Source: Branchipolynoe longqiensis | Lineage: Eukaryota; Annelida; Polychaeta; Phyllodocida; Polynoidae | DNA length: 64,000 bases | Reading direction: 5' to 3' | NCBI GenBank assembly: GCA_030323885.1 | Contig: CM059189.1 | Span: forward strand, 51,743,661-51,807,660 | Notes under the pieces: generated by a model | Seen by the model: the letters and a program-made list of their open reading frames with translations, nothing else | What the model was told of the DNA's origin: nothing | Database searches by the model: none | Program-made: the position numbers and the translations under genes | In this document: positions 42,074 through 60,247 of the stretch, one piece after another | How the letters are laid out: each line of letters begins with the position of its first letter | How positions within the stretch are numbered: the stretch's first letter is position 1

Positions 42074-42202
42074 TTATTGGATAAGGTCATCATCGCTGTC
42101 ATCATCGAAAGTGGGCAGGTGCGCATTGATGTCGGAGAAGGCGGTGACCGCGTTAGTCGAGTTGTTGGCGATCAGGAACTCATCCTCATCCAGCGAGGAC
42201 AG
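42074..42202 (-). CDS. IGF2R: CI-MPR-like terminal exon: acidic cytosolic tail and stop
   Basis: The terminal coding exon of 42 codons plus TAA follows acceptor CTTATCTCCAACAG. It encodes LSSLDEDEFLIANNSTNAVT and continues to HLPTFDDDSDDDLIQ. The end matches the known CI-MPR and sortilin tail type: a casein-kinase-2 serine in an acidic run, then a DxxLL-like signal bound by GGA adaptors. Here the second Leu is Ile. It begins in phase 0, as the 55368-55440 exon requires, although 13.2 kb lies between them. The stop is followed by 83 bp of unique sequence and then a minisatellite, which presumably forms part of the 3' UTR. I found no clear polyadenylation signal close by. Confidence 0.9.
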   Translation of the reverse strand: MSSLDEDEFLIANNSTNAVTAFSDINAHLPTFDDDSDDDLIQ

Positions 42203-42249
42203 CTGTTGGAGATAAGCACAGAGGGATATTTGAAAATAGGTCTCTTTTT

Positions 42250-42488
42250 GTTTGTTTGCTTGTTGCTGTTTTATGTCCTAGCAATATCTAAGATCACATC
42301 AGGACGAGCACTGATTTGTGACAGTGCGCACTCATGATGACTTGATAGTGCTGCCCAAATGGGAGACCAGGCCGCCAGCACCATGAACCGCAAGCCCACA
42401 CAGATAAAATATCCGACACTGTGCTAACCAGTCCTTGGCATATCCTAATAATGCAGAACGCCAGGCTAGGTAGCGACAAGTATCAATA
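42250..42488 (-). repeat. SINE-A copy, head missing
   Basis: TTGCTGTTTTATGTCCTAGC to GGTAGCGACAAGTATCAAT. It inserts about 48 bp upstream of the last CI-MPR exon, close to its branch-point region. Confidence 0.83.
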
Positions 42489-42561
42489 CCAGGTCAGACA
42501 GATAATTGACCAGTAGATGGCTATAGCTTCATATCCCTGCACTCAAATGGATTACCATATT

Positions 42562-42566
42562 TTATG

Positions 42567-42612
<46 letters not shown>
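42562..42612. repeat. (TA)n microsatellite
   Basis: TATG then pure TA next to the foldback element. Confidence 0.93.
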
Positions 42613-42615
<3 letters not shown>

Positions 42616-42616
42616 T

Positions 42617-42919
42617 AGTTATACGAATCTTACCTGGGTATAGATGATGGATAACTGTTGTTTTCCCGAGGTAGAAGCCTCGGGTAGACGTGGGCTAGGG
42701 AGAAGGAAGCACGTGAGGTACCAGCAATTTTAACCTACTTATTCAGGATAAAAATGATCTTTCAATACAATGGATACTATGATTTTCCCGTAACGGTACA
42801 CCAACGGGATAGACGTGGCAGGGCGTGGTGGGTGGGCCCTAGCCCATGTCTACCCGAGGCTTCTACCTCGGGAAAACAACAGTTATCCATCATCTATACC
42901 CAGGTAAGATTCGTATAAC
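42617..42919. mobile_element. 303-bp foldback element with 79-bp inverted ends, related to the DIRS termini
   Basis: 42617-42695 and 42841-42919 are inverted repeats with about one internal mismatch (ATACGAATCTTACCTGGGTA and TACCCAGGTAAGATTCGTAT at the tips). Just inside the left arm, 42695-42729 (CTAGGGAGAAGGAAGCACGT then GAGGTACCAGCAATT) matches the inverse of 47920-47957, the subterminal part of the neighbouring DIRS element. No ORF is present. I read it as a non-autonomous relative. Confidence 0.7.
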
Positions 42920-43050
42920 AATACTATTTTACCTCGGTATACAGCCTCAGGCTAGCCTCAGGCTAGGGAGACCTTTACATAATTCATTTTTATCCTTAAT
43001 ATCATCCATTCTTATATAATATTCAACATTTTTGTTCTCACCTATTCTTG

Positions 43051-44160
43051 TTAGTTGGCGAGCAGGCACTTTGCAATGCCGGGAGGCTTTTCTAGTCGCT
43101 TGTTGTAATGTTTTGCAAACGACTTAGCCGTCTTCCAGCCTGCATGCGCTAGTATTCTTTTCACAGAAACACCTAGCAACCGTGCCTTGGAGACCATGGC
43201 ACCTCTAGTTGAGTGGGATGAGTATTTGCTCGTATCCACTCCAGCCAATTTCAACACCGTAATTGTCCATCTGGCAAGGGTGTCTCGTGAAATTGCTTTA
43301 TGTGGCCTTATAAAGCTCACTAATAGTTGTTGTGATGCACGTAAATCCTTTGTCTTAGATATATAAGCCCGTATGGCTGACACAACACATAATTTCCGAT
43401 CACTCGGAAAACAGTCTAAGTGAACCGTAGATAAAGGGTCACCTAACGTGTTCGATTTAAGCAATTGTGCTAAATCAAACGTAGCTTGTTTCTTGTCTAT
43501 TTCTAATCCAGTTAAAGACAAAGCAACAATCGTCTGTCCTCTGTGTCCGGTTACTAATAATAACAGGACCGCGACCTTAAAACCTAATTGTTTTAAATCT
43601 AACCACGAGTTGTGAGGCCAAGCCTGAAACAACTTAAATACTACAGACACATCCCAAAACGGACTATACTTTGGTTTTGGAGGATTCCTTTGATAAATTG
43701 AACGAAGTAAATATCCAAGAACATAATGTTTTCCAACTGTTTCACCATCAATTCTCGGTAATATGATTGATAACGCACATCTTGCCGCATTAATCGACCC
43801 AAAGGATAGTCCCTCATCCTCTAGAGAATGAAGAAAACGAGCTACTTGTGAAATTGTTGGATTTGTTGGCTTAACTTTCATTAACAAACAATGTACACCC
43901 CATTTCTTTAAATAGGATGTGTACATTTTGACAGTTCCTGGCCTCCAGGCATCAGCTACTATCCTATTCTCAGTAATTTTGTCCAATCCAAATTGGCGCA
44001 GCTGGTTCCTTAGAAAAGGAATGCCAATAGGGGCGTCGTTGACACGTCGCCGTGAACCACTAACGGTCCGTGGTGTGTCAGATTCCCGAGTTTTCTTGGG
44101 AATCGTATATGTTCTTTTGCCAGTTGTGAAACTGCTGGCAGCCAAGGTTGCGTGTCCCAA
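43051..44160 (-). CDS. DIRS tyrosine recombinase
   Basis: 369 residues, intact. The N-terminal SAM-like core-binding part contains TVKMYTSYLKKWGVHCLLMK. The catalytic domain carries the tyrosine-recombinase set: Arg207 in TGHRGQT, His316 and Arg319 in SSHSTRGA, His339 in LAHAGWKTAKSF, and nucleophile Tyr352 in KHYNKRL. Recombinases of this type integrate the circular DIRS intermediate without target duplication. The start overlaps the end of the polyprotein reading frame, as is usual in DIRS elements. Confidence 0.9.
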   Translation of the reverse strand: MGHATLAASSFTTGKRTYTIPKKTRESDTPRTVSGSRRRVNDAPIGIPFLRNQLRQFGLDKITENRIVADAWRPGTVKMYTSYLKKWGVHCLLMKVKPTNPTISQVARFLHSLEDEGLSFGSINAARCALSIILPRIDGETVGKHYVLGYLLRSIYQRNPPKPKYSPFWDVSVVFKLFQAWPHNSWLDLKQLGFKVAVLLLLVTGHRGQTIVALSLTGLEIDKKQATFDLAQLLKSNTLGDPLSTVHLDCFPSDRKLCVVSAIRAYISKTKDLRASQQLLVSFIRPHKAISRDTLARWTITVLKLAGVDTSKYSSHSTRGAMVSKARLLGVSVKRILAHAGWKTAKSFAKHYNKRLEKPPGIAKCLLAN

Positions 44161-44402
44161 TCGGGCACCACAAGTATCGCATGTGTCCTTTCCAGACCGA
44201 TTTTCCTGACAACTCGGCTGATAATGCTAAATGGTGGGAAAATATAAAAATAATTATTTTCCCAGGTAATAGCAAATGCATCTACCTTCCAAGCCTCCGG
44301 TTCAGGATGCCAAGAAACATAACAAGGTAATTTGTTATTATTTCGTGATGCAAATAAGTCAACTTCAGGTGTACCCCATTTTTCACAAATGAATTTAAAC
44401 AA
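44010..44402 (-). pseudogene. Frameshifted C-terminal part of the DIRS RT/RNase H polyprotein
   Basis: FKFICEKWGTPEVDLFASRN and SWHPEPEAWKVDAFAITW match the typical DIRS segment directly after RNase H (WGxPxVDLFASR, then VDAF, then W). VVPDWDTQPWLPAVSQLA follows. It overlaps the RNase H ORF by 121 bp in a different frame, and overlaps the start of the recombinase ORF. A programmed shift is possible, but a disabling indel is simpler. Confidence 0.82.
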
Positions 44403-45895
44403 AGGTGTAAATGGTCATGGAAATTTCTACTTTTATGGTCTGCAAGTGTATTTTGTGACCCTGGAATATGCGCTACAGTCAGCCAGACTTGTTGAGCCTG
44501 TGCCCAGTTCCAAATCAGTTTAGACAACTGATTGCAAGGCTTTGATTTGGTTCCACCAATGTTACGAATATATGCCATGGCAGTAGTATTATCAGTTAGT
44601 ATTCTAACTTGTGATTTATGTATCTTTACTAAACTACATAAGCCCAGATAAATAGCACGCAATTCTAGTGCATTAATATGGTCTGATTTTTCATCATCAA
44701 GCCATCTACCTCCTGTTGTGACCTCATCTCGATGAGCTCCCCAACCTTCTAACGAAGCATCAGTAGTAATTACCGTATTAGGTTCCGCCATGCGGATTGG
44801 ATTTGGTGAACTTGCTATATGTTGCATCCACCATCCAATATCCTGTAGCCCTTCTTGCGAAATAAACATCTTTCGCTCAAAATTCCCTTTAGTTCGTGTT
44901 AACGCTAAATTTTTATCTATTTCTAGAGATTTAATATGGGCCTTCCCGTATAGAATAGCGGGTGCATACGATATCATTATTCCAATAAGGACTGCGACCT
45001 GTCTAATTTTAGGTTTTGGTAACTTAATAAGCTGGGTCGCTGTATTCATAAACTTAATTAGTTTTTGTTCTGTTATCGACACTGTAAGAGACTGTGTATC
45101 CAGAATAAACCCTAAACATTTGAGTTGTTTTGTTGGTTTAAACACTGACTTTTGTGGATGTACATAAAACCCCAATTTAGTAAGTAATGCACATAAATCC
45201 AACACTGCATTCTCACAATCAATTTGTGTTGATGCAATAATAAAGGAATCATCTATGTATGGAAACATTATATGACCCTTCCGCGCCATTACTGAAAAAA
45301 CAGGTTTAAGCAGTTTAGTGAATAAACGAGGGGCACAAGCTAAACCATTCGGCATGCAAGTAAACTCATAGAGTTGGTTATCCCAAAGAAACCGAAGAAA
45401 TTTCCGGTCTTTTTCACTTATGGGAAGCATATAATATGCATCTTGTAAATCAACACTAGCCATCCACGCATCTGGCGTAATCAGATCGCGTGCTGTATCT
45501 AGCGAGAACATTTTAAAATGTCGATATTCAACCATTTTATTAAGGATTGTTAAATCCAGGATCATTCGAACCTCACCATTAGGCTTTGGTCTCGAGAAGA
45601 TGTTTGAAATAAACTCTCCTGAACAGTATGTCACTTTTTGTATAATTCCTTTCTCAAAGAATTTTTGTACCTGTTTAGTTAGTGCCTCTCGTTCAACTGG
45701 TTCAATGTTATAAGGAAAAGGTATCCTGCCTTGTACCGGAATTTGTGTGAAGGGAATATGAACACCCCTAACTATTTGTAAAATTTCTTGGTCACTAGTA
45801 ATTTTGTGCCACTCAGAAATATGATTATTAATATTACCAGCCACAAAGTTGCTTACAGTTTGTGTGGTTTTAGAGGCTGGAAGGACTTGTAACAT
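44282..45895 (-). CDS. DIRS reverse transcriptase / RNase H, 3' end frameshifted
   Basis: 537 residues. RT motifs are RMILDLTILNKMV (about 110-122), ASVDLQDAYYMLPIS with catalytic Asp149 (motif A), FTCMPNGLACAPRLFTKLL (motif B) and FPYIDDSFIIA (YIDD at 213-216, motif C). RNase H follows with VITTDASLEGWGAH, RILTDNTTAMAYI and HIPGSQNTLADHKSR. After residue 490 or so the frame becomes meaningless. The expected continuation is in another frame at 44010-44402, so an indel lies near 44405-44425. Confidence 0.88.
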   Translation of the reverse strand: MLQVLPASKTTQTVSNFVAGNINNHISEWHKITSDQEILQIVRGVHIPFTQIPVQGRIPFPYNIEPVEREALTKQVQKFFEKGIIQKVTYCSGEFISNIFSRPKPNGEVRMILDLTILNKMVEYRHFKMFSLDTARDLITPDAWMASVDLQDAYYMLPISEKDRKFLRFLWDNQLYEFTCMPNGLACAPRLFTKLLKPVFSVMARKGHIMFPYIDDSFIIASTQIDCENAVLDLCALLTKLGFYVHPQKSVFKPTKQLKCLGFILDTQSLTVSITEQKLIKFMNTATQLIKLPKPKIRQVAVLIGIMISYAPAILYGKAHIKSLEIDKNLALTRTKGNFERKMFISQEGLQDIGWWMQHIASSPNPIRMAEPNTVITTDASLEGWGAHRDEVTTGGRWLDDEKSDHINALELRAIYLGLCSLVKIHKSQVRILTDNTTAMAYIRNIGGTKSKPCNQLSKLIWNWAQAQQVWLTVAHIPGSQNTLADHKSRNFHDHLHLCLNSFVKNGVHLKLTYLHHEIITNYLVMFLGILNRRLGR

Positions 45896-45909
45896 TTGTG
45901 TTTGAACCT

Positions 45910-47259
45910 CTACTTGGACCCGCCCCTGGGGAAGGGTCTCGGCGAGTTGACACCTCGGCCTAGTGGCCGTGCAGTGTTGTCGGTCCAGCCTGAGCGAGCG
46001 CCCCGGCCCCGAAAACCTTGACCGAAGTTTGAACCCGATCTGGTTCCCCTGGTGAACCGCCGTGGACGAAAATCCCCTCGTGACCTTTTGAAACGAGGAG
46101 TTTCCTGTTTCTTCTTACCATCCATGTTTTTGCCACTCTTGGCTGCAGTTTCTACCTCTTTATAGAGGTATTGTAGTTGACCGCCAAACATTTTGGTGTT
46201 ATCTAAAGGTTTCCCTTTAATCGGCTCTGGAGCAAGAAAGAGCGTAAACTCTTTCCCATCATTATCAGTCACCTTCTTTGAGCGAGCCACTTCTTTGCCA
46301 GCATCTGTGCAAACTGACTTGAAAACATTTTCATATCTTCGATACGACAGGTAATTACCTGCCGCCGCCAACAATGCAATACCTTTGTCCATCGTCTTAG
46401 CCAAAGACGAGAACTTGTTTTCTTGTTGCATTCTGTTTGCTACAGGAGCAATAGCTGTTAAGGTACCAAGCACCGCCTTATGCACTATGTGCAACACACC
46501 CTCAAATCTCTTACGGTCCTCCGTCATATTGACATCTCGATCCATCTCCTTAATGATGGAGTTGGGAACACCTTTTATGCCTGTTAGCTCATCTGATAAT
46601 TTAGAAATAATCTCCGCCGGCTTAAACGTGCGGAAATGGCCATTAATGTTCTCACGCATAAGCGTAGTGGTTTTCACCCGCTTAGCCCTTGGCTTCTCGA
46701 CTTTCTTAGCCACTTTGCCTCCAATGGCAGCATAGACACCTTCATATTGCGTGTCTGAGTCCGATTCCGTAGACGTGGAATCCGTGGACGAGTCAGAAGA
46801 AGAAGAAACTTTCCTCTTCTTCTTCTTCTTCTTCTTGGACTTGGTCTTGCGCTTTTTGCGAAGCCCAGTCTTCCCCCTCTCCTTGGTGAATTCATCACCC
46901 GAAGAAACAATGTGTTTCTTCTTCTTTCTTCGTTTAGGAGAAGGAGGAGGAGCCCTAAGCTCCATCTCTGAGTCTGTGTCGGAGAAATCCTCCACAGAAG
47001 ACTCTTCTTGCACACTCCGTTTACGAGACACCGGTGGTTTGAGAGCCATTATGTGACTCTCCATCGCCGCAAACCGCGTCTCCCAATTTTGAGGCGCGGC
47101 GCCGCCAGGCACTATGTCCTCCTCGGAGAGAATATGCGCCCCGGGCTGTGTCGCAGGCCCTGCCGACAACACGGGTGAGGAGTCGTACTCCTCGTCCTCG
47201 CCACTCGGAACACGCCCCTCGGCTGCTGCTGCACCGCGCTTACTCCGCTTCGTGGCCAT
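45910..47259 (-). CDS. DIRS Gag-like protein
   Basis: 449 residues. The N-terminus is acidic (SGEDEEYDSSPVLSAG). A Lys-rich stretch at about residues 130-150 (KKKKKKRK) and a Ser/Asp-rich stretch follow. A globular middle holds NGHFRTFKPAEIISKLSDEL and LSYRRYENVFKSV. The C-terminus is Arg/Gly-rich (FRGRGARSGW) and probably binds RNA. There is no zinc knuckle. It ends 14 bp before the reverse transcriptase ORF. The function is inferred from position and composition, as DIRS Gag is poorly conserved. Confidence 0.8.
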   Translation of the reverse strand: MATKRSKRGAAAAEGRVPSGEDEEYDSSPVLSAGPATQPGAHILSEEDIVPGGAAPQNWETRFAAMESHIMALKPPVSRKRSVQEESSVEDFSDTDSEMELRAPPPSPKRRKKKKHIVSSGDEFTKERGKTGLRKKRKTKSKKKKKKKRKVSSSSDSSTDSTSTESDSDTQYEGVYAAIGGKVAKKVEKPRAKRVKTTTLMRENINGHFRTFKPAEIISKLSDELTGIKGVPNSIIKEMDRDVNMTEDRKRFEGVLHIVHKAVLGTLTAIAPVANRMQQENKFSSLAKTMDKGIALLAAAGNYLSYRRYENVFKSVCTDAGKEVARSKKVTDNDGKEFTLFLAPEPIKGKPLDNTKMFGGQLQYLYKEVETAAKSGKNMDGKKKQETPRFKRSRGDFRPRRFTRGTRSGSNFGQGFRGRGARSGWTDNTARPLGRGVNSPRPFPRGGSK

Positions 47260-47988
47260 CGAGAGCTGAATTGATCAGTCCCGGTATATATATATATGTC
47301 ACAACATGGTTGTTTAAAACTCATTTGGACATCTATTGGTGTTAGAGAACGTGTTTATACCGTTATAACACAGGCGTAATAAGCTAAATTTGTGCGTGGG
47401 TTGTGGGTCAAGCCCAAACCTTACGCGGGGTCGGGACCAGTGTATCGGCCCGCCCATCCCTCTGTCACGCACACTTCTCCCACCTGTGACTACAACGTCA
47501 ACAAGTTGGAGAAAATGCTACGAAACTCGGAGAAACGCCTGAAAAGTTTGTGGGGAGTCTATAAAAGAAACCCAGGAGCATCTCCAACATTACTCTCTAT
47601 TAGAGTACGAGAGAATTTCCACAGGAGACGAGGCAGAGCCCACATCTCTACCCATAATCACACGGTGACTCGGGTGTTGACAGAACCGCTAATGACCGGT
47701 TTCAATCCTTCGAGAAGGAATTCTATCCTTGGTTTTTTATAACCAAATAACTCGTCCAAAATGGACCAAAGAAAGTCTAAACTTTCCATAATGATGCTCT
47801 AATGCATCATAATTAAGCTAACCACAGTTTTTATGATACTTACTGCGTATTAGCTTGTATGTAGACTAAATTTGCCGGAGCAACCCAACGACACGTAATC
47901 CAGTCGTGAGTTGTATATGCTAATTGCTGGTACCTCACATGCTTCCTTCTCCCTAGCCTGAGGCTAGCCTGAGGCTGTATATCGAGGT

Positions 47989-47992
<4 letters not shown>

Positions 47993-48058
<66 letters not shown>
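47993..48058. repeat. (TA)n microsatellite at the DIRS 5' edge
   Basis: About 30 TA units directly abut the element terminus. The other edge lies near TA-rich sequence too. Confidence 0.95.
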
Positions 48059-48059
<1 letters not shown>

Positions 48060-48376
48060 CTTTTCACATAAAGTGATTTAGAGGGCTGTGCCTTATTGGT
48101 ACCAAAAGGCGTCGGTGAAGTCGCCACAAGAGCCCTCGTGGCCCGCAGCAATGGAGGCAGACAGGCCTGCCGAACGCCCATTGGTTGAATAATAATAACT
48201 AAACTAATCCAATAAAAAAACAATTCCTTCGTACCGAAGATTCATGTGCTATGTAATTAATTATATTAATATAAATATGTATTCAGTAATTATTATATAT
48301 ATTCGGTAATTATTGTCTCCGGCGATGCAAGTTGTGCAAGTTTGCGTTAAATATTTATAGCCGTATATTAATATAC

Positions 48377-48379
<3 letters not shown>

Positions 48380-48420
<41 letters not shown>
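48380..48420. repeat. (TA)n microsatellite
   Basis: TA repeats ending at a MITE-N terminus, as expected from TA-target preference. Confidence 0.93.
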
Positions 48421-48421
<1 letters not shown>

Positions 48422-48560
48422 TAAAACCTCTCTAACTGACCACCTCCACAGATTGACCATTCCCCTATATTGATCGCTTTATTTGGGTCCCAAATGATCG
48501 CCGATACAATACCATTTTAATGATAAAAAAAACTCCCTAAACCGACCACCTCCCAAAATG
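48419..48560 (-). mobile_element. MITE-N copy 3, truncated
   Basis: CAGTAAAACCTCTCTAACTG, GATCGCTTTATTTGGGTCCC and ACTCCCTAAACCGACCACCT. Relative to the other copies it is reversed and lacks the far terminus. Confidence 0.78.
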
Positions 48561-48565
48561 GATGT

Positions 48566-48597
<32 letters not shown>

Positions 48598-48626
48598 ATG
48601 TATATATATATATGTGTATATATATG

Positions 48627-48668
<42 letters not shown>

Positions 48669-48835
48669 CACATTATATATGTGATGTATAACACATTATG
48701 CAAGTATAAAAATACGGAAGGGAATTGTTTCTAATTATTGATATTATTGAGATTACCATTCGTTATACTCCACGAGACTCTGCACTTGACAGGTGGCGCC
48801 ACCTGCAGCCCACCTCACCTCCAACGGGTGTCGAC
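48560..48835 (-). repeat. (TG)n, (TA)n and a repeat-O copy
   Basis: TG run at 48570-48596, TA runs to 48668, then TATGTGATGTATAACACATT, ACGGAAGGGAATTG and GACAGGTGGCGCCACCTGCA, which is repeat O reversed. Confidence 0.75.
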
Positions 48836-49154
48836 AAGACTAGTGTCAGTCGCAGCGGAGGAATATACGGAATATTATTGACCTGGTAAATGACATCACT
48901 TTACCAGTGAGTAAATCCAGTCTACCAGTTAGTGAGACCCGAGTTTAACCACTTTACCTGTGAATGACGCGCCACCTGGTGAGCACCTTACTGACAGGAC
49001 ATGCTAATTGATGCGTCACTTAGCGCTAACTGGCGATGCGCATGCCGCGTCCCACCTCAACGCGTTGTATCCAGGCGCATGCCCACTGCGCACCCGGCGC
49101 GTTTCCGTCGTGTTAGGCGTGCATTCCATTGTTGAGCGAAACTCCCAGCACGAG

Positions 49155-49437
49155 TGATTGGTTGGTTGGTTATTGGAGTTTTTCGTCCTGGCAACATCTA
49201 ATGTCATATCAGGATGGGTACCGACTTGTGACAGTGCACTCATCGCAACTTTAATAGTGCTACCCCACTGGGAGACTAGGCCACCAGCACCATGACCTGA
49301 TATCCCACTCAGTCACATTATCTTGACACTGAGCCAACCAGTCCTTGCCATATCCCAATAATGCCGAGCGCCTGGCTATGAAGCGGCAAGTATATATTTT
49401 TAAGTCATTGGTTTGACTCGACCAGGGTTCGAAATCC
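49155..49437 (-). repeat. SINE-A copy 1 of the duplicated block
   Basis: GGTTGGTTGGTTATTGGAGT to ACTCGACCAGGGTTCGAAAT. The outer part of the tRNA-like head is missing and the unit body starts at once. Confidence 0.87.
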
Positions 49438-50167
49438 CTGCACCTTTATGAATATGCCGTAAGGCCTCAATGTGGCTGCCTTGTGTATCAGAGCTGTACA
49501 TTAGGTTACCTTGAATAAACAGCAATTGCATTAAAAAAGTATTTAACTGCTCCGACATTAGAGATCCCAACTGCTCCGATTTTGTAGGAAGATTTCCGAT
49601 TTTGGTTACTCTCTTTTGATATTACGATTCCATGTGCAAATCTCCCGATTTTCACTCTTACTCACTTAACAAAAAAGAAGCTAATACGAAAGGCAAAATC
49701 AGCTACATCAGTGGCTCAAGGTGGCAAGCTGAGCCTAGAAAATGACAAATAGACACACGGTGGGATACACGGTGGGACTTGCATGAAAAAGCATATAATA
49801 TAATAATATATACACATTATATATCGTATGATTATACTTGGTCATGATATATATTCAATTCTCATGCAGCGTGTTGCCACACACAAACTTATCTTCCTAA
49901 CAAAATGTTAAAATCTTCCTATTTTTGGTCACACAATGTTGGCATTTCTGCAACACACGTCAATGCTCTGCTGAGTTATGACTAGGATGACGTAGCTTCG
50001 CCCCCCCGCACCTCCACTAATTTCCTTTTCATTGACAATTTCCTCAGACTGATAGCTGCACCCTGTTGCTGACGCAGGTCTTTAAATCTCCCAGATAATT
50101 TTAAACGCGACAGCGTAATATGTTGACAATCATCAACTCAGCAGGGAGCATCAAGATTCCATTTGCT

Positions 50168-50500
50168 TGTTTGTTGTTTTACGTCCTAGCAACATCTAAG
50201 GTCATATCACGACGGGTACCGACTTGTGAGAGTGCACGGTCATGGTGACTTTATAGTGCTGCCCCACTGGGAGACCAGGCCACCAGCACCATGACCTGAT
50301 ATCCCACTCAGTCACATTATCCTGACACTGAGTTAACAAGTCCTTGCCCTATCCTAATAATGCCGAGCGCCTGGCTAGGAAGAGCCAAGTATAAATTTGT
50401 ATGTCATATGTTTGACTCCGCCAGGGTTCGAACCCACAAACCCATGGGTTTGGATCCCCCGATTTCCCAAAACAGGAGGCGGTTTCTCAACTCATTCGGC
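50168..50500 (-). repeat. SINE-A copy inside unit 1
   Basis: TTTGTTGTTTTACGTCCTAG to a head with the CATTCGGCCATTCCGTTTGG variant. It shares GGAAGAGCCAAGTATAAATT with the unit 2 copy. Confidence 0.87.
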
Positions 50501-50983
50501 CATTCCGTTTGGTTGGGGCATGAAGAAAGATAGATGAGAATGGCCTGACAAAACAAAAATCAGGAAAATATTTGATGAATTTTTGTGACTTCTAAAGTGA
50601 CGGGAGAAGCCAGGATGGTCACACAATTTTTCCCTATCCAGGGGGGAAAAATTGGGAAGATCAAACATCCGGTATTCCAGAAGATTCTCAGCTATGAGAA
50701 AGAAAATGAAAACAGAAACTACACCCTTTGAACTAAGCACCTATAGGACGTTCAAAATGTGATTCATTGACTGGGTTTGACGTCATAGCAATATCTGAGG
50801 ACAGGACAGGTACCAACATTTAATAGCGCGCACTCATGGTGGTCTATTTATTATGCGGTCTGACTCAGCGGGGGATTGATCCCATTACCTGCAGTCCATT
50901 AGTAAGTTTTTGGTCTCATTACTTCTTGTCCTTCATTTTAACCTTACAGCTGGGAGTTGTTTGTTTCACCCTAACAGCTGGGT

Positions 50984-51238
50984 TGGTTGGTTGTTGGAGT
51001 TTTACATCCTGGGAACATCTAAGGTCATATCAGAACGGGCACCGACTTGTGAGAGTGCGCACTCATGGCGACTTTATAGTGCTGCTCCACTGGGTGACTT
51101 TATAATGCTGCCTCACTGCTAGGACGCGACAAGTAAATATTTTTAAGTCATTGGTTTGACTCGACCAGGGTTCGAAACCCCACGATCTACCAAATCGAGA
51201 GACGGACACCTCCACGCATTCGACCATCCCGTCTGGTC
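50984..51238 (-). repeat. SINE-A copy between units, central deletion
   Basis: GGTTGGTTGTTGGAGTTTTA, then duplicated GTGACTTTATAATGCTGC, then a jump to CTAGGACGCGACAAG. The head CGACCATCCCGTCTGGTC is kept. Confidence 0.85.
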
Positions 51239-52017
51239 ACCGAGAAAGCACTACCTCTAGAAAACACTGCACCTTTATGAATATGCCGTAACGCCTCAAT
51301 GTGGCCGTAACGCCTCAGAGCTGTACATTAGGTTACCTTGAATAAACAGCAATTGCATTAAAAAAGTATTTTAAAAACTGCTCAGACATTAGAGATCCCA
51401 ACTGCTCCGATTTTGTAGGAAGATTTCCGATGTTGGTTACTCTCTTTTGATATTACGCTTCCATGTGCAAATCTCCCGATTTTCACTCTTACTCACTTTA
51501 AAAAAAAGAAGCTAATAGTAATACGAAAGGCAAAATCAGCTACATCAGCGGCTCAAGGTGGCAAGCCGAGCCTAGAAAATGACAAATAGACACACGGTGG
51601 GTAACACGGTGGGACTTGCATGAAAAAGCATATAATATAATAATATATACACATTATATATCACATGATTATACTTGGTCATGATATATATTCAATTCTC
51701 ATGCAGCGTGTTGCCACACACAAACTTATCTCCCTAATAAAATGTTAAAATCTTCCTATGTTTGGTCACACAATGTTGGCATTTTACAACACAGGTCAAT
51801 GCTCTGCTGAGTTTTGACTAGGATGACGTAGCTTCGCCCCCTGCACCTCCACTAATTTCCTTTACATTGACAATTTCCTCAGACTGATAGCTGCACCCTG
51901 TTGCTGACGCAGGTCTTTAAATCTGCTTTCCGCTTCTTAACATTCCCAGATAATTTTAAACACGACACCGTAATATGTTGACAATCATCAACTCAGCAGG
52001 GAGCATCAAGATCCATT

Positions 52018-52370
52018 TGCTTGTCTGTTGTTTTACGTCCTAGCAACGTCTAAGGTCATATCACAATGGGTAACGACTTGTGAGAGTGCACAGTCATGGC
52101 AACTTTATAGTGCTGCCCCACTGGGAGACCAGGCCACCAGCACCATGACCTGATATCCCACTCAGTCACATTATCCTGACACTGAGCCAACAAGTCCTTG
52201 CCCTATCCTAATAATGCCGGGCGCCTGGCTAGGAAGAGCCAAGTATAAATTTGTATGTCATATGTTTGACTCCGCCAGGGTTCGAACCCACAAATCCATG
52301 GGTTTGGATCCCCCGATTTCCCAAAACAGGAGACGGACGCTCAACTCATTCGGCCATTCCGTTTGGTTGG
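52018..52370 (-). repeat. SINE-A copy inside unit 2
   Basis: TGTCTGTTGTTTTACGTCCT to CATTCGGCCATTCCGTTTGG, paralogous to 50168-50500. Confidence 0.87.
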
Positions 52371-52842
52371 GCCATGTAGAAACATAGATGAGAATGGCCT
52401 GACAAAACAAAAATCAGGAAAATATTTGATGAATTTTTGTGACTTCTAAACTGATGGGAGAAGCCAGGATGGTCACAAATTGTTACCGTATCCAGGGGGG
52501 AAAAATTGGGAAGATCAAACATCCGCAATTCCAGAAGATTCTCAGCTATGAGAAAGAAAATGAAAACAGAAACTACACCCTTTGAACTAAGCACCTATAG
52601 GACGTTCAAAATGTGATTCATTGACTGGGTTTGACGTCATAGCAACATCTGAGGACAGGGCAAGTACCAACATTTAATAGCGCGCACTCATGGTGGTCTA
52701 TTTATTATACGGTCTGACTCAGCGGGGGATTGATCCCATTACCTGCAGTCCATTAGTAAGTTTTTGGTCTCATTACTTCTTGTCCTTCATTTCAACCTTA
52801 CAGCTGGGAGTTGTTTGTTTCACCCTAAGAGCTGGGTTGCTT

Positions 52843-53244
52843 GGTTGTTGGAGTTTTACATCCTGGGAACATCTAAGGTCATATCACGCCGGGTACCGAC
52901 TTGTGAGAGTGCGCACTCATGGCGACTTTATAGTGCTGCCCCAGTGGGTGACTTTATAATGCTGCCCCAATGGGTGACTTTATAGTGCTGCCCCACTGGG
53001 TGACTTTCTACTGCTGCCCCACTGGGAGACCACACTGCCAACACCATAACCTGATATCTTACTCAGTCACATTATCCTGACACTGAGTCAACCAGTCCTT
53101 GCCATATCCTAATAATGCCGAGCGCCTGGCTAGGAAGCGACAAGTATCAATTCTGTAACTCATTGGTTTGACTCGACCTGGAATCGAACTCCCGATGTCC
53201 CGCACGGGAGGCCTGCGCTCTACCGACTGAGCCACTGGGTCCGG
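52843..53244 (-). repeat. SINE-A copy 3 of the block, with a 28-bp internal tandem
   Basis: The GGTGACTTTATAGTGCTGCC CCACT segment is repeated about four times (52921-53030). The head is well kept (GACCTGGAATCGAACTCCCG, CTCTACCGACTGAGCCAC). Confidence 0.87.
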
Positions 53245-53245
53245 T

Positions 53246-53844
53246 GCCTAACAGTTGGGAGTGCCCTGTTACACCCTAACCAGTGACAGTGCCTTCTCCA
53301 GGGTCGGCTCACCCACACACACACAAGGTCTGTGAGGACCTTTCTGGCGGTTCCACAGAACCTTTCTTTCCATACTACAATACGCGTTTCCTACTCGTCT
53401 ATAATAGATCACTGTGTGAAGGAGTCGTTCCGATTCCATCCGCAACTCATTATTAAATTTGTTTATGGAAACTGTTGTTTTTTTTTTTAGCAAAAAACCA
53501 TTTTCGATTTCAAACTTGGAAAAAGGTTATATTGTTCGTTTTATTTCTCACATACCATTTGTGATTTTCCTACAGTTGTATGTTTATTTGGCACACATTT
53601 CTGCGCTCTATTTGACCTGTTTTAAACGTAATATTTTAGTCAGTTACGTTTAACCACTGTATGACCCCCCAATATCCGATGTTTACTTTTTGTCGTAGGA
53701 AGGGAGCCGTTAAACAAACAAACAAATCTAATAAAAGACATGTTCCGTTATATCCGCATACAACAACACCCAAACCTTTCATTCGGGATATGAAGGCAAA
53801 CCATCTGTACAATACCTCAATTAAGAAGTGCTATTCATACTAGT
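53246..53844. other. No gene supported
   Basis: AT-rich sequence with short ORFs lacking domains. 53664-53710 (CCCAATATCCGATGTTTACT) resembles 25870-25915. Confidence 0.35.
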
Positions 53845-54266
53845 TAAAGGGGCTGTCACATTAGGTTTTTTTGCGGGAGCGTATGGCGGCGTAGGCGCGT
53901 TACGTCATATACATCGGCATACGCCGTATACGCTACTCATACGCTACGCATACGCTACTCATACGCCGCCAGATGCCGGCTTATGTGAAGCGTATGAGGC
54001 ATACGCCGCCATACGCTTTCATAAATCCGTCCGTCCAAATTTTTTTGTGCATGCTAAAAAAAACTCGACCTATGAGGGCGTATGGCCCATACTGTCAAAA
54101 GATGTCACAGCACGCTCCCATACACTCCTCATACGCTCCTCGTAGGTTCCACATACGCTCAAAACCACCCGAAAGGTCACCAAATGTCATCATAGGCCGG
54201 CACGCGCAGGACCTACGTAGTTTTCAATACGCTCCCGCCATACGCCGTAATGTGACAGGGCCTTTA
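53845..54266 (+). mobile_element. MITE-L, full copy
   Basis: TAAAGGGGCTGTCACATTAG and TAATGTGACAGGGCCTTTA are inverted ends. The interior is packed with CATACGC/GCGTATG words. Terminal sequence overlaps that of MITE-K although the interiors differ. Confidence 0.78.
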
Positions 54267-54312
54267 GGCCACTTACCCTTCTCACCTGTCTAAACCTATC
54301 TTGCCCTATCAG

Positions 54313-54338
54313 CCCCCCCCCCCCCCCCCCCCCCCCCA
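54313..54338. repeat. Poly(C) run of about 26
   Basis: Uninterrupted C after TATCAG and before ACCATCC. Confidence 0.95.
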
Positions 54339-54439
54339 CCATCCACGCCCCAAATCACAAGTATAAGTTTAAGAAGCCTGTATATTCCACGTTGTCGTCA
54401 CACAGTGAAGCGCAGAGGCAGCGCCCGTAGTTAGGGTCT

Positions 54440-54680
54440 GGGCCGATGGTGGCGCCACCAGTACCAGCATGTAGGATAAGGAGTGAATACATCGAGAATA
54501 GTGGTTGGTTGGTTTGTTTGTTGTTTTACGTCCTAGCAACATCTAGGGTCATATCTCATTCGGCCATCCGGTCTGGTCATAGTGGTTGGTAGATAATGAA
54601 TAGAAAATTAATAATAATAATTCCCTTCCATGCCTTTATATTCGCATAATTCTTATACATCACATATATATTCACGGGCT
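54440..54680 (+). repeat. Repeat O split by a SINE-A 3' fragment
   Basis: GATGGTGGCGCCACCAGTAC then, at 54508-54584, GTTTGTTTGTTGTTTTACGT with CATCTAGGGTCATATC and CATTCGGCCATCCGGTCTGG. After it comes AATTCCCTTCCATGCCTTTA and TACATCACATATATATTCAC. The SINE is internally deleted. Confidence 0.7.
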
Positions 54681-55084
54681 CTGACTATATTCAGAGACCG
54701 TGTGTATATTATCTACGTTCTCTGATATATTGCGGAATTGTGCACGGTCCCATTTGAACATAGCCACCATTTGGTGGAATCCATCTGTACGATTATGTGG
54801 TAAACCATATCGATGGTGCTATCTAATGTTGGAATTAACAACACTCGCGGTTTCTTGACCCAAAATGGATGCCACTCTGGTCGAAGTAACCAATGTTAGT
54901 AAAAACAATAAAAACTGTAATGGTGAACGGTAGGCACAAAAACGTGCGATTAATAACCTATACATAGCGAAGCATCTGTGGAGTACGATGATGCGCGTTG
55001 GAAGCGCAGATTAACAGAGGAGTAGTGATCAGAATGACCCTAAAACTTAACGGTATTATATATACATGATGATGATCTCACACA

Positions 55085-55290
55085 TGTTGGCAACAATGTG
55101 GTGTCCCCTCTGTGGGAAAGCGCATATAATTTATAAAGGACCTGTTTCTGCTTATCGGAAAGAGTAGCCTATGTGTCTCCAGCGGGTTTCCTCCAAAGAA
55201 ATGTCAGAATGACCATATGGTAGACGTCCAATAGCCGATGATAAAAATCAATGTGCTCTAGAGGCGTCGTTAAATAAAACAAACTTTCTT
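55085..55290 (+). repeat. SINE-B, 5' truncated
   Basis: TGTTGGCAACAATGTGGTGT, TCGGAAAGAGTAGCCTATGT, CCAGCGGGTTTCCTCCAAAG, GTCCAATAGCCGATGATAAA, ending GCGTCGTTAAATAAAACAAA. It lies 78 bp from the 55368-55440 exon. Confidence 0.85.
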
Positions 55291-55367
55291 TAAGTCAACG
55301 CTATTTTTCCTGCGGCAGGCTGGGGTAGGTTGCCACAACCTGCCGCAGCCTGCCCATGGGCACTCAC

Positions 55368-55440
55368 CGTCGAGTACTTGATGAGGGCGCCTCCATGTCG
55401 CCGTTGGAACAGCCGCCGGACTCCCCGCTTAAACGTCCTT
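55368..55440 (-). CDS. IGF2R: CI-MPR-like exon: basic cytosolic juxtamembrane segment
   Basis: The 73-nt exon has one leading base that completes AG|A (Arg) from the previous exon, then 24 codons ending at a codon boundary. The acceptor is a strong TGTTGTCCTCCTTGCAG and the donor is ACG|GTGAGT. It encodes RTFKRGVRRLFQRRHGGALI then KYST. The cluster of basic residues suits the inner face of the membrane. The final YST joins Leu at the start of the next exon to make YSTL, a YxxPhi internalisation signal of the type bound by AP adaptors. The other two frames of the exon carry stops or break the phase. Confidence 0.87.
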
Positions 55441-55496: not shown

Positions 55497-56035
55497 AATC
55501 AGGGATGAAAGTGGTCTTCAGCAAAAAATGCGGTTTTCAAACCCAAGATTAAAACACTGAAGGCTAATTTCCGTGATTTTTCTTTTTTTTTTGGTAAATA
55601 TGTTTATTCTGCTGAATAAGTCTTTTGTCAGTGCCGAAGCACTGGTCTTCCAGCCATTTTTCAATTCAGTGTTATTTACACAAAAGGTATATAGAATAAG
55701 GTGTACAATACCTGTTGAATAGACAATTTGCACCATGTAACACAATGAAATTCTGAAACCCAAAAGTTCCATAACAATATGGTACAGTAGTGTCATATAA
55801 CTAGATCAATATTAGTCAATGTGAGTATTTACACAGTATTTAGAATGTAAGCAGAAGTTATCTTCTGTATTCAGTTGGTAAACTTGTAGTAAGTTTTAAT
55901 GTTCAGTTGCAGTTAGGCAAGCGGTATATAAATCTTGGTTTGTTAGGAAAATTCTAGTGTAACTCTAATGTAGTGAGTTATGTGAGTTTATGAATTATGT
56001 TGTAAGCGTGAAGCAGTGGGACCAATCCCAGTGCA
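55497..56035. repeat. Repeat-Q fragment and unassigned intron
   Basis: CAGGGATGAAAGTGGTCTTC at 55500 begins a repeat-Q fragment. The rest is AT-rich intron sequence without features. Confidence 0.5.
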
Positions 56036-56039
56036 TTTA

Positions 56040-56304
56040 GGTCTTAAATTTTACATTTTTACCTGGACCGTCTCTGTCATCGTATATGGTTGAGTGGAGA
56101 TAACAGAGGAACAGCAACAAATTATAAAAGTGGGGGCTGGGGGGGGGGGGGGGGAGAGAAACCGAGGCTGAGGGTTTGGTGGTCTGCCACTTACGGTATG
56201 GTGACGCCATGGAAAATACTTTACTGCAACTGCATAAGGGCCTGCCCAATCCGATGTACTCTTAGTGAGTTTTTAATGATAATGCAGTGATAATGCAGAT
56301 TCCC

Positions 56305-56335
<31 letters not shown>

Positions 56336-56590
56336 ATAGGATTAGCACAGTCAGGGAATCGTAGAAAAAATACCGGAAGTCAGGTTTAAACTGCCATTGC
56401 TGTGCCTGTATTATCGACCATATTAACTATTTCTTGTTTGAGTTTCTTATTCTAGCAACATCTAAAGTCATATAAGAACAGCATTTGAACTCACCAATTG
56501 TTGCCATATACCACCGATTCCTTGGGATTTTGTTTAACGTTATTGGGTGAATATAAAAAAATTGTGGAAGTCTACAAAATGGCAGAGATC
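56040..56590. repeat. Dispersed repeat (as 26970) and repeat Q with a long poly(C)
   Basis: 56041-56180 matches 26970-27110, with G13-16 at 56137. 56305-56336 is C-only (about 29). CCATAGGATTAGCACAGTCA, TCTAGCAACATCTAAAGTCA and TTGTTGCCATATACC follow, as in the 35594 copy. Confidence 0.7.
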
Positions 56591-56664
56591 TTTTATCTCT
56601 GTTGAATAAAGTCTTTTGTCATACAAACATGCTTTCAATGGCCTATATAACTTTAAAGTGGCGT

Positions 56665-56990
56665 TCTCTGTGGTGGAGTGGTTAGTGTCTAACATTTTTC
56701 TAGGTCAGACTCCTAATCTGAGGGTCGGCGGTTCGATTCCCCATGCCCCCAGCTCTGCCAATTTGGATTTCCACCGCTGTGTATAACTTACAGCGTCATC
56801 AAAGGCCGGTTGCTCTCATACCATGTCTATGTGGTATGCGAGGTTAAAATCCCTTGGGTCGGTAAAAGTGTAGGCTCGGGCTTTCTATCGACCAGCAGTG
56901 GAATGAGGAAGACCAGTCTGACTGAAATTTCCCCTGCTTAAACAACTAATGGACCAAAAAAAAAAAGAAAAAAAAAGAACCCCATCTTCC
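56665..56990 (+). repeat. SINE-C copy
   Basis: GTTCTCTGTGGTGGAGTGGT, GGCGGTTCGATTCCCCATGC, TTTCCACCGCTGTGTATAAC, AAAAGTGTAGGCTCGGGCTT, and an A-rich tail (56957-56980). The 3' end lies about 40 bp from the transmembrane exon's donor site. Confidence 0.82.
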
Positions 56991-57020
56991 GAGATGTGCG
57001 ACGGGGTTCAGCCCACTCAC

Positions 57021-57167
57021 CTGGTCTCCACCTTGGCGAATATGACGAGGAGTCCGACGACGATTATGAGGGCTATGCTTCCCCCTACGATGGCCCCCGC
57101 TGTGCTCTGCGCCATCACCGGGGAGAGGTTCCCACCGCCGGGACCCGCCCGGGACGCCCTCCCTCCA
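57021..57167 (-). CDS. IGF2R: CI-MPR-like exon: lumenal stalk and transmembrane segment
   Basis: The 147-nt exon has one leading base (completing Ile with the previous exon), 48 codons and two trailing bases. The acceptor is GGACAG and the donor is CAG|GTGAGT. It encodes a Gly/Ser/Arg-rich stalk, then STAGAIVGGSIALIIVVGLL and VIFA (a single hydrophobic helix of about 22 residues), then the positive stop-transfer KVETR. The helix followed by basic residues sets type I topology, with the MRH repeats in the lumen. The exon is GC-rich compared with the AT-rich repeats around it, as expected of constrained coding sequence. Confidence 0.87.
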
Positions 57168-57239
57168 CTGTCCAACAAATTCATCAAAATGGATGCTTGG
57201 TTAGTTGGTTGGTTGCAAGGTCCGTACACATGAGAAGAT

Positions 57240-57530
57240 ATGGAATTCAAGGCTGTTTCAAGGCTTTTCAAGGCTGTTTTTTATAGGGATTCAGGCGAGT
57301 ATTGGCGTTTTATTGTTGATAGGTATATCGGATTATCCTATGCCGAATTCATTTGGATTTAGTCCGAAATCGCCATTCAGAATTTTGGACTAATTTAGAT
57401 CAGTGGGGCCAGTTTAATGGAATTCAAGGCTTTTCAAGACTAATTACCCAAAATAGGTTAAAATCAAGGCTTTTCAAGACCAATTACCCAAAATAGGTTA
57501 AATTCAGGGCTTTGAAAGTTCCAAGTGGAA
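57240..57530. repeat. AAGGCTTTTCAAGAC short repeats
   Basis: GGAATTCAAGGCTTTTCAAG recurs at 57241, 57419 and 57463, with CCCAAAATAGGTTAAA twice. Intronic. Confidence 0.7.
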
Positions 57531-57559
57531 TTCCACAAGAAGTCTCGCATAAGTCACGT

Positions 57560-57610
57560 TGTTTGCTGTTGTTTTACGTCCTAGCAACATCTAAGGTCAT
57601 ATCAGGACGG
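57560..57610 (-). repeat. SINE-A 3' fragment
   Basis: TTTGCTGTTGTTTTACGTCC TAGCAACATCTAAGG and ATATCAGGACGG only. Confidence 0.75.
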
Positions 57611-57729
57611 CAGAAGTTATGTTTAACATCTGTCGGCCGGCTGTCTTCTTAGATAACAGTCTCAAACATGGCATAATTAGGCACCGTCGGACCCCCCCCG
57701 GGGCCTTAACCTGGGCTGCGTTCAAGTCT

Positions 57730-58010
57730 ACATGCGAGTCTGAACAACATTTAGCTGTCCGGTGCCTTGAAAATGGCGGCCTCCATGGCATGCAGCCATT
57801 TGCAATTGAAAGAACAGTTCTGATTGGCTGACACAGACGGCCATTTTGGAGACGGTTTTGCCTATTACTTGAAAAATGAAAAGCGTGATATCTCGGGAGC
57901 CGACTCCGAGGTGCACCTAGAATTCAAATTGGTCAAAAAGACTTCACGGAGCCATCTCGGAATTGGCTCTGAGGTGTACCCTGTACATGGCACAGTGAAC
58001 AGGGGGAAAT
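57730..58010. repeat. Repeat with ATTTGCAATTGAAAGAACAG, also at 59240-59400
   Basis: AGTTCTGATTGGCTGA and AATGGCGGCC/GGCCATTT words recur at 59260-59370 in a related arrangement, and weakly at 11412-11470. Family unknown. Confidence 0.5.
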
Positions 58011-58162
58011 GATAGATTGTCTTATTTGAGAGTTAAAACTATATCATTTCAAATTTTGTTATAGATGTAGGGTCGGCTATATATATGTAGTAGTCTGCAC
58101 TGACCTCTCAGGCAAGTAACCACATAGACAGGTAGGCGTGGGTAGTATGGTGATATAAGGGA

Positions 58163-58234
58163 GCCTAGGTGGTGTAATGGTTAGCACACTGGCCTGGAGT
58201 GCAAAGAGATGTGGGTTCGAGTCCCGCTCTAGGC
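58163..58234 (+). tRNA. tRNA-like cloverleaf, probably a pseudogene or SINE head
   Basis: 72 nt that fold as a tRNA. The acceptor GCCTAGG pairs with TCTAGGC (one G-T). The D arm is GTGT/GCAC with loop AATGGTTA. The T arm is GTGGG/CCCGC with loop TTCGAGT. The anticodon stem (CTGGC/GCAAA) pairs at only three of five positions and the loop CTGGAGT would read GGA (Ser). The long variable arm of serine tRNAs is absent. A and B boxes are intact. I do not think it is a functional tRNA. Confidence 0.4.
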
Positions 58235-58524
58235 GCAATATTTCCCATTTTCATCACTCCCATGACATTATATATATTTTTTTCTTCTCAGTAATTTAAC
58301 AAGCTAAAATCAGAAACATGAATAACTCGAGGGTGGGTGGTAAATACATTTGTCCTCTCGTATTATCCAATTGGATTAGCAAAAAATAATGTTTGTCTGT
58401 CTGTCTCTCCGTCTGCTCTCTCGGTCGCCTTGTTTCTCTGTCTCTATCTGCCTCTATCTGTCTGTCTGTTCACCTGTCCATCTATCTATCTACACACATT
58501 CAAATCCTCACTAAAACAGCAATA

Positions 58525-58798
58525 CCCCAGTCACATTACTGCTTGCGACCACTTTGCGACCACAAAAAAGAGGTGGCCACAAAATGGTCGCAAAGTTGTT
58601 CTCAGTGGTCATTGACTTTGCAACCATTTCAGTCACAAGGAGGTTGCAGCTATTGCACTACAAACGTCCTTGCTACCAAAATCATCACCCAGAGGTCAGA
58701 GAGCATTGCTTTGGTTGCAAGGTCATGAGTTCTTTGCTCCAAAGTGGTTGCAAAAGGGCTGCACACAAAGTAGTCACAAGCAGTAGTGTGACTGAGGC
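58525..58798 (+). mobile_element. MITE-P copy
   Basis: CCCCAGTCACATTACTGCTT and AGCAGTAGTGTGACTGAGG. It lies about 98 bp from the MRH exon donor in the receptor intron. Confidence 0.8.
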
Positions 58799-58895
58799 TT
58801 ATCTAAGCACCATGAAGCTTGGCAACGAAACGCGCTCAATTTAACTGAACAATAACATACAAAGATGCCAAAAGGCGAAAAGCTGTGCTACTTAC

Positions 58896-58981
58896 ATCAT
58901 TGGCTGAACGCAGATGAGAGACGTGTACCAGTCAAACAGGTAGACGCAGCTGCGTGACCTGCCTATGAACAGGGGCCCCGT
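58896..58981 (-). CDS. IGF2R: CI-MPR-like exon: end of the last MRH repeat (FDWYTSLIC)
   Basis: The 86-nt exon starts at a codon boundary and ends with two bases of a split codon. The acceptor is a good pyrimidine-AG (CTGTCTTTCAG, reading back into the intron) and the donor is a consensus GTAAGT. It encodes TGPLFIGRSRSCVYLFDWYT then SLICVQPM. The pattern cysteine, x-Y-x-F-x-W-x-T, cysteine is the hallmark of the C-terminal strands of an MRH domain, where these two cysteines form conserved disulfides. It lies in the lumenal part of the receptor just before the membrane span. It is too short to appear as an ORF starting with ATG, so it is easily missed. Confidence 0.9.
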
Positions 58982-59751
58982 CTGAAAGACATGCGCACAG
59001 TGGACGAAAGTTTGGAAACGCTACGCATAACACCGGAAGTATCCGGATCTATTATAACTTTACTAATGCCTATAGAGCTAGCAATGGATGTATTCGACTG
59101 GGCCTTTCTATACGCATATCAAAATATAGTTCTTTACAAATTCCTATTCGACTGGGACAGGAAGAGGGTTTCTATACCTATGAATCGAATGTGTTTTGTG
59201 GCTCCATCCATAAGGTCACATGGTGTATTTCAAGATGGCTGACATGGAAAGGTTGTAAATGAACAGCTCTGATTGGTTCTTTTCGATTGCAAATGGCCAC
59301 CCCCATACAGGGCAGTCATTTGCAATGGAAGATAACAGCTCTGATTGGCTGAAACCACTGAAGCCATTTGACTGGTCCTCTTTGCATTTGAAAACCAAGT
59401 TCACTGCGCAGGTGGGCGGACCCTAAATCTTGCGGATGGAAAGGTCCCAGTCGAATGTCTCCAATTTAACGGACTATACAAGGACCAGAATGTGTACGTG
59501 TAATCACTGCACTGTGCAACTTTAAGAAAAGCAACAGCTCTTGATCAATTTTAATGTGTCCTCAAGATTTGCCTGTTTAATGTAGTTTTTATTTGGTAAG
59601 CGAAAGTTCTTTATCCTCCATTCATTGTGAGCAAGTTATAAATATGTTATATTTATTGCTTTACTGTATAGCACCTTAGAATGGCACTCTGTTATATTTA
59701 CATTGTTCATTTGTTTGTTGAAGTTTTATGTCCGTGACAACATATAAGGTC

Positions 59752-60092
59752 AATTTGTTGGTTGTTTTAGTTTTACATCCTAGCAACATCTAAGGTCATA
59801 TCAGGATGGGTACTGACTTATGGCAGTGTGCACTCATGGTGACTTTATAATGCTGCCCCACTGGAAAATCAGGCCGCCAGGACCATGACCCGATATCCCA
59901 CTCAGTCACATTATCCTGACACTGAGCTAACCAGTCCTTGCCCTATCCTATTAATGCTGAGCGTTAGGCTAGGCTAGGTAGCGACAATTATCAATTTTGT
60001 AAGTCACTGGTTTCACTCAATCGGGAATCAAACTCTCGATCTCCCACTCGGGAAGCCTGCGCTCCACCTCTTCGGCCACCGTGTCCGGTGTT
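59752..60092 (-). repeat. SINE-A copy, full length
   Basis: TTTGTTGGTTGTTTTAGTTT to a full head (TCGGGAATCAAACTCTCGAT, CGCTCCACCTCTTCGGCCAC, CGTGTCCGG). It sits 46 bp from the donor of the 60138 exon. Confidence 0.87.
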
Positions 60093-60137
60093 AAATTTAC
60101 ATTATGATCAATTACACGTTCATGAACACACAACTAC

Positions 60138-60247
60138 CTCATTTAGCTGTGACGTCATGCAGTGGAAGACAATGACGGTGCTGGCCTTGTGGCTGCTGTC
60201 TGACTGGCACGACGTACTTGACGTGAACTCCGCTTCTACAACGTCAT
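60138..60247 (-). CDS. IGF2R: CI-MPR-like exon: MRH repeat, strand containing the TVIVFHC motif
   Basis: The 110-nt exon has two leading bases, then 36 open codons, and ends in phase 0. It encodes SCQSDSSHKASTVIVFHC, the MRH pattern of a cysteine, a short polar stretch, a hydrophobic T-V-I-x-F strand and a second cysteine. The donor is GAG|GTAGTT, acceptable but not ideal. The acceptor follows TGTTAACAG. A second AG 12 nt further in (after GTTGTAG, exon then 60138-60235) keeps the same phase and would drop four residues. The acceptor lacks a clear pyrimidine tract because a LINE 3' tail of AATC repeats lies directly upstream. The next exon continues the same MRH repeat in frame. Confidence 0.75.

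What the first reader, a model, noticed from the sequence alone, without database searches (positions are those of the whole stretch)
42074..60247. Five phase-matched exons of a CI-MPR/IGF2R-like lysosomal sorting receptor hidden in repeats
None of the five exons stands out as an ORF, yet splice sites, phases and protein motifs all agree. The MRH end is CVYLFDWYTSLIC. One transmembrane helix follows, then a tail ending FDDDSDDDLIQ. This is the only host gene I can support.
Basis: partly seen in the sequence, partly recalled or inferred. Interest (0 to 1): 0.8.

Follow-up and report, generated by a model that had tools for sequence, protein, structure and literature searches.

The report
Ordinary animal CI-MPR gene, 3' end

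Summary
Confirmed and ordinary. On the minus strand the window holds the last five exons (60247-60138, 58981-58896, 57167-57021, 55440-55368, 42202-42074) of a CI-MPR/IGF2R gene. One border needs care: the exon with CVYLFDWYTSLIC starts at 58981; the acceptor at 58958 is out of phase with the exon before. All exons joined give one open frame of 2,405 aa in 42 exons over 112,871 bp, every intron GT-AG, with a leader peptide, 15 CIMR repeats (Pfam, 1,007 bits, E 0), one membrane helix and a 71-residue tail. The best relative is the annotated CI-MPR-like protein of Haliotis asinina (41% identity, whole length); bovine CI-MPR is the best solved structure (E 0). The four mannose-6-phosphate contact residues are kept in domains 3, 5 and 9, not in 15. 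No fibronectin-II insert was found, as in the 8 non-vertebrates aligned. The host is not a deuterostome by the tree and probably a lophotrochozoan (weak support, 78). Expression was not testable. Low score: new member of a known family.

The parts
60138..60247 (-). exon 38 of 42: part of MRH domain 15 (DVVEAEFTSSTSC...STVIVFHCMTSQLNE), enters with 2 bases of a split codon, leaves in phase 0
   Evidence: open frame, AG/GT borders, in phase with upstream exon C4:51812391-51812132; aligned to relatives
58896..58981 (-). exon 39: end of MRH domain 15, TGPLFIGRSRSCVYLFDWYTSLICVQPM
   Evidence: pattern unique in window; acceptor at 58981 is the in-phase one; aligned to relatives
57021..57167 (-). 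exon 40: stalk and single transmembrane helix (AGAIVGGSIALIIVVGLLVIFA)
   Evidence: column-aligned with the helix of relatives
55368..55440 (-). exon 41: start of cytoplasmic tail, basic stretch then IKYST
42074..42202 (-). exon 42: end of tail, LSSLDEDEFLI...FDDDSDDDLIQ, stop TAA
   Evidence: pattern unique in window
42203..55367 (-). last intron, 13,165 bp, holding a DIRS-like retroelement
   Evidence: length from exon borders; ORFs 43051-44160, 44282-45895, 45910-47259

Best explanation
[quoted passage not shown] IGF2R in mammals) of an invertebrate, probably a lophotrochozoan. The protein is a type I membrane receptor: leader peptide, 15 MRH repeats in the lumen, one membrane helix, a tail of 71 residues. 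Inferred mechanism: domains 3, 5 and 9 bind mannose-6-phosphate on new lysosomal enzymes in the trans-Golgi; the tail's tyrosine motif (YSTL) and acidic dileucine motifs (EDEFLI, DDSDDDLI) recruit clathrin adaptors of the GGA and AP types, carry the cargo to endosomes and recycle the receptor. Shown here: gene structure, domain number, conserved binding residues, tail motifs. Inferred: expression, M6P binding, adaptor binding, traffic.
For: PF00878 matches only at this locus, same strand, 9 of 9. 42 exons, all introns GT-AG, one open frame of 2,405 codons with a single terminal stop. Pfam CIMR 15 stretches, 1,006.7 bits. 205 relatives at E<=0.001 among 7,984 scored candidates, 120 listed; the best is the CI-MPR-like protein of Haliotis asinina, 41% identity, 100% coverage of the 2,366-aa query without exon 1. 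Bovine CI-MPR 6um1 E 0, query residues 7-1899 and 1902-2330 in order. Q, R, E, Y in domains 3, 5, 9 in register with cat CI-MPR. Tail ends DDSDDDLIQ against DDSDDDLLE in Haliotis and Gigantopelta. An upstream exon MFYFKLFAVIVISVSYWIYLSSAEC..., hydrophobic leader by eye, has the right phase.
Against: No RNA evidence. Splice sites were picked by hand with phase as one criterion, so phase agreement is partly built in; the independent check is the end-to-end homology. Donor of exon 38 (gag|gtagtt) is weak by my score (1.4). Domain 15 has R, S, R, Y where cat has Q, S, E, Y. The same alignment shows that contact residues are not always kept in relatives: in domain 3 Haliotis, Gigantopelta, Aplysia and Tubulanus lack the E and Tachypleus lacks all four; in domain 9 Gigantopelta lacks the Q. 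The final motif is LI, not LL. Whether the genome makes the M6P mark is unknown: seven requests for PF11380 and one for PF18440 did not complete. Copy number rests on a search that scores only the best candidates.
Confidence: 0.97

Rival explanations
1. The exons are a decayed or processed pseudogene copy of a CI-MPR.
For: Parts of exons are locally duplicated inside introns upstream of the window, as in a locus with many repeats.
Against: Introns are kept, so it is not processed; no stop or frameshift in 2,405 codons over 42 exons; no second CIMR locus among the 9 matches.
Confidence: 0.02
2. A receptor of the family that no longer works through mannose-6-phosphate, like Drosophila LERP, and sorts cargo by protein contacts.
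For: Domain 15 lacks two of the contact residues; LERP lacks M6P-binding residues and flies lack enzymes of the mark (PMC4610224, abstract and passages). The M6P-making enzymes were not found or excluded here.
Against: All four contact residues are kept in domains 3, 5 and 9, three of the four mammalian sites; 15 repeats, not 5 as in LERP.
Confidence: 0.05
3. The five exons belong to another MRH protein (ELAPOR, CD-MPR, GNPTG) and not to a CI-MPR.
For: Pfam also lists weaker matches to ATG27, Man-6-P_recep, PRKCSH_1 and an ELAPOR1 model.
Against: CIMR scores 1,007 bits against 279 for the next; 15 repeats, colinear with CI-MPRs; in the 120 relatives listed, those with a functional name are called CI-MPR, IGF2 receptor, MPRI or lysosomal enzyme receptor protein, the rest hypothetical, unnamed or 'MRH domain-containing'.
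Confidence: 0.01

Closest known systems
[quoted passage not shown]
   Same: colinear over the whole query, one membrane helix, short tail with IKYSxL and a DDSDDDL[LI] end; 41% identity over 100% of the query
   Different: ends LIQ instead of LLE; tail 71 residues against 84; another species
Vertebrate CI-MPR/IGF2R (bovine 6um1; cat P0053)
   Same: domain order, M6P residues of domains 3, 5, 9, tail end DDSDxDL
   Different: no fibronectin type II insert found in domain 13, tail 71 residues against 165 in cat, domain 15 residues differ; IGF2 binding not expected (PMC6779898, passages)
Drosophila LERP
   Same: receptor family; acidic dileucine and tyrosine-type sorting motifs (PMC4610224, passages)
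   Different: LERP has 5 repeats and lacks M6P residues; this protein has 15 and keeps them in three domains
Cation-dependent M6P receptor (CD-MPR)
   Same: MRH-type homology (CD-MPR chains listed at E 2e-5)
   Different: one MRH repeat only (recalled); a separate CD-MPR-like exon lies on another contig

Membership tests
CI-MPR / IGF2R | 15 tandem MRH (CIMR) repeats in the lumen | tested here: met
   Pfam PF00878, 15 stretches, 1,006.7 bits
CI-MPR / IGF2R | end-to-end colinearity with known CI-MPRs | tested here: met
   Haliotis 41% over 100%; bovine 6um1 in two ordered stretches
CI-MPR / IGF2R | type I topology: signal peptide, one membrane helix, cytoplasmic tail | tested here: met
   exon 1 hydrophobic leader and exon 40 helix aligned with relatives; judged by eye, no topology program was run
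CI-MPR / IGF2R | M6P contact residues in domains 3, 5, 9 | tested here: met
   Q, R, E, Y at all 12 positions; which residues to look at is recalled, except that PMC7481795 (passages) names four essential residues per site
CI-MPR / IGF2R | M6P contact residues in domain 15 | tested here: not met
   R, S, R, Y; cat has Q, S, E, Y; the 8 non-vertebrates aligned vary there too, so I do not treat it as defining outside vertebrates
CI-MPR / IGF2R | C-terminal acidic-cluster dileucine | tested here: met
   DDSDDDLIQ; relatives end for example DDSDDDLLE, DDSDEDLLA, DDSDEDMIL
CI-MPR / IGF2R | fibronectin type II insert in domain 13 (vertebrate feature) | tested here: not met
   absent in the model and in the 8 non-vertebrates aligned, present in cat; PF00040 is listed for vertebrate and some unnamed hits, for no named invertebrate
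CI-MPR / IGF2R | binding of M6P ligands and lysosomal traffic | not testable with these tools
   needs protein and cells

The most novel reading that the evidence does not exclude
The locus is rich in local tandem copies, some of which include a splice site and the start of an exon (6 of 41 acceptors, 2 of 41 donors). If some copies are used, the animal could make receptors with alternative MRH segments. The evidence does not exclude this, but the rate at splice sites (8 of 82) is below that at random non-exon points of the same gene region (54 of 300).
Probability: 0.03. Interest if true: 0.35.

Novelty: new member of a known kind. Interest (0 to 1): 0.1.

Why it matters
It confirms that an exon chain read by eye from repeat-rich DNA was a real gene, and it adds one more invertebrate CI-MPR with 15 repeats and three intact M6P sites, in line with M6P sorting being old in animals and reduced in flies. 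It opens no long-standing question.

Tried and rejected
Pfam on the five window exons alone fell below the cut-off; solved by going upstream. The 58958 acceptor for exon 39 was rejected for phase. The idea that tandem duplication at exon edges is special to this gene's splice sites was tested against 300 random non-exon points and dropped. The fibronectin II insert was looked for by alignment only; a missed symmetrical exon in domain 13 cannot be fully excluded, but the 8 non-vertebrate relatives aligned lack it too. Host identity: the quick tree of 22 proteins keeps this one out of the deuterostomes (support 99) and out of the sampled molluscs (94); the fork that joins it with molluscs and a nemertean has only 78. 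Its branch is long (1.24) and its composition deviates, and annelids, brachiopods and chitons were not sampled, so no phylum is claimed. The search for GlcNAc-1-phosphotransferase did not complete. No structure prediction was run, as sequence evidence sufficed.

Full report
The observation. On the minus strand of the window, five exons with AG/GT borders read in phase: 60247-60138, 58981-58896, 57167-57021, 55440-55368 and 42202-42074, ending in TAA. Degenerate patterns for CVYLFDWY and FDDDxDDD each match once in the window and in none of 100 shuffles. The five pieces together hit bovine CI-MPR at E 1.8e-15, best aligned to its last MRH domain and membrane helix; Pfam gave 13.4 bits, under its cut-off of 22.5. 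One border needed care: the exon with CVYLFDWYTSLIC has an acceptor at 58958 that is out of phase with the exon before it, and an in-phase one at 58981 that adds TGPLFIG. Relatives have residues in the same stretch.

Upstream. The window is C4:51743661-51807660 of a 1.85-Gb assembly with no name. The CIMR model PF00878 finds 9 places there among 16 scored candidates, all on C4, minus strand, 51825474 to 51892421. Fourteen 10-kb stretches upstream were taken. A profile made from those exons and bovine pieces marked a row of exons in which I counted 15 'NVC'-type segments, one per MRH domain. Joining them by hand, with AG/GT borders and phases, gave 41 exons in one open frame. A pattern search for the start gave two candidates, one of which codes a hydrophobic leader followed by CVLNNYDFLPLDAD, the counterpart of the relatives' N-terminus, in phase. 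The whole model is 42 exons, 112,871 bp (C4:51898604-51785734), 2,405 residues, one stop at the end, all introns GT-AG. Because phase was used in choosing borders, phase agreement alone is not proof; the homology is.

Identity. Pfam finds 15 CIMR stretches, 1,006.7 bits. Of 5.8 billion proteins, 205 matched at E<=0.001 among the 7,984 candidates scored; 120 were listed. The best is annotated as CI-MPR-like of Haliotis asinina (41% identity, 100% coverage of the 2,366-aa query); other molluscs, a nemertean, amphioxus, hemichordates, echinoderms, vertebrates and arthropods follow. By MAFFT the identity to Haliotis is 42.3% over 2,303 positions. The best solved structure is bovine CI-MPR, in two ordered stretches.

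Function. CI-MPR has carbohydrate sites in domains 3, 5, 9 and 15 (PMC7481795, passages). The four contact residues, chosen by recall of the mammalian literature as Q, R, E, Y and aligned with cat CI-MPR, are all present in domains 3, 5 and 9 of this protein; domain 15 has R, S, R, Y. (The legend shown lists Gln, Arg, Glu and Arg for domain 9; the Tyr is recalled.) Some relatives lack one or more of these residues: in domain 3 Haliotis, Gigantopelta, Aplysia and Tubulanus lack the E, Tachypleus all four, and in domain 9 Gigantopelta lacks the Q. The tail has 71 residues, against 84 in Haliotis and 165 in cat, with IKYSTL, EDEFLI and DDSDDDLIQ; the motif classes are recalled. [quoted passage not shown] Affinity for IGF2 is described as a placental-mammal trait, with orthologous molecules present throughout the animal kingdom (PMC6779898, passages). 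So the protein most likely sorts M6P-tagged enzymes. PF02157 has 4 matches elsewhere in the genome; the best, on contig C15, reads by eye like the membrane end and tail of a CD-MPR, and I did not resolve the other three. The enzyme that makes the mark could not be checked, since the search did not complete.

Host. A quick tree of 22 proteins keeps this one out of the deuterostomes (support 99) and out of the sampled molluscs (94); it joins molluscs and a nemertean with only 78, on a long branch and with deviating composition. It is probably a lophotrochozoan; unsampled groups such as chitons, annelids or brachiopods remain open.

Surroundings. The last intron (13,165 bp) holds a retroelement with a reverse transcriptase and a tyrosine-recombinase match under Pfam's cut-off, between inverted repeats, so DIRS-like. 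Locally duplicated segments are common across the gene: 54 of 300 random non-exon points and 8 of 82 splice sites lie in them.

Verdict. The gene is an ordinary orthologue of a known receptor.

Noticed in passing
window 43051-47259 (-), inside the last intron: Three consecutive ORFs (449, 537, 369 aa): no Pfam match, RVT_1 plus weak RNase H-like match, and a phage-integrase match under its cut-off; CCTAGCCTGAGGCTAGCCTGAGGCT at 42967 and its reverse complement at 47976 on the minus strand. A DIRS-like retroelement.
   Followed up: partly
window 2080-5124 (-): Adjacent ORFs with reverse transcriptase (710 aa) and endonuclease (239 aa) domains: a LINE-type element downstream of the gene.
   Followed up: partly
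window 41308-41979: Degenerate ATAGGGATG-type tandem array starting about 95 bp past the receptor's stop codon, so perhaps in the 3' UTR or just behind it.
   Followed up: no
C4 upstream of the window, e.g. 51894411-51893914, 51885366-51885106, 51859602-51858736: Tandem copies (2 to about 5) of segments that span a splice site and an exon start; not more frequent at splice sites than at random non-exon points (8 of 82 against 54 of 300).
   Followed up: partly
C15:49812585-49812710 (+), locus L024: Open stretch reading GAKGIDQLPNCAFWQEFGNLQA after a hydrophobic run, which resembles a CD-MPR tail (resemblance by recall; PF02157 match E 1.9e-12): a second M6P-receptor-type gene in this genome.
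   Followed up: partly
window 61135-63272 (+): Three ORFs of 208-238 aa without Pfam match in the intron between exons 37 and 38; perhaps a mobile element.
   Followed up: no
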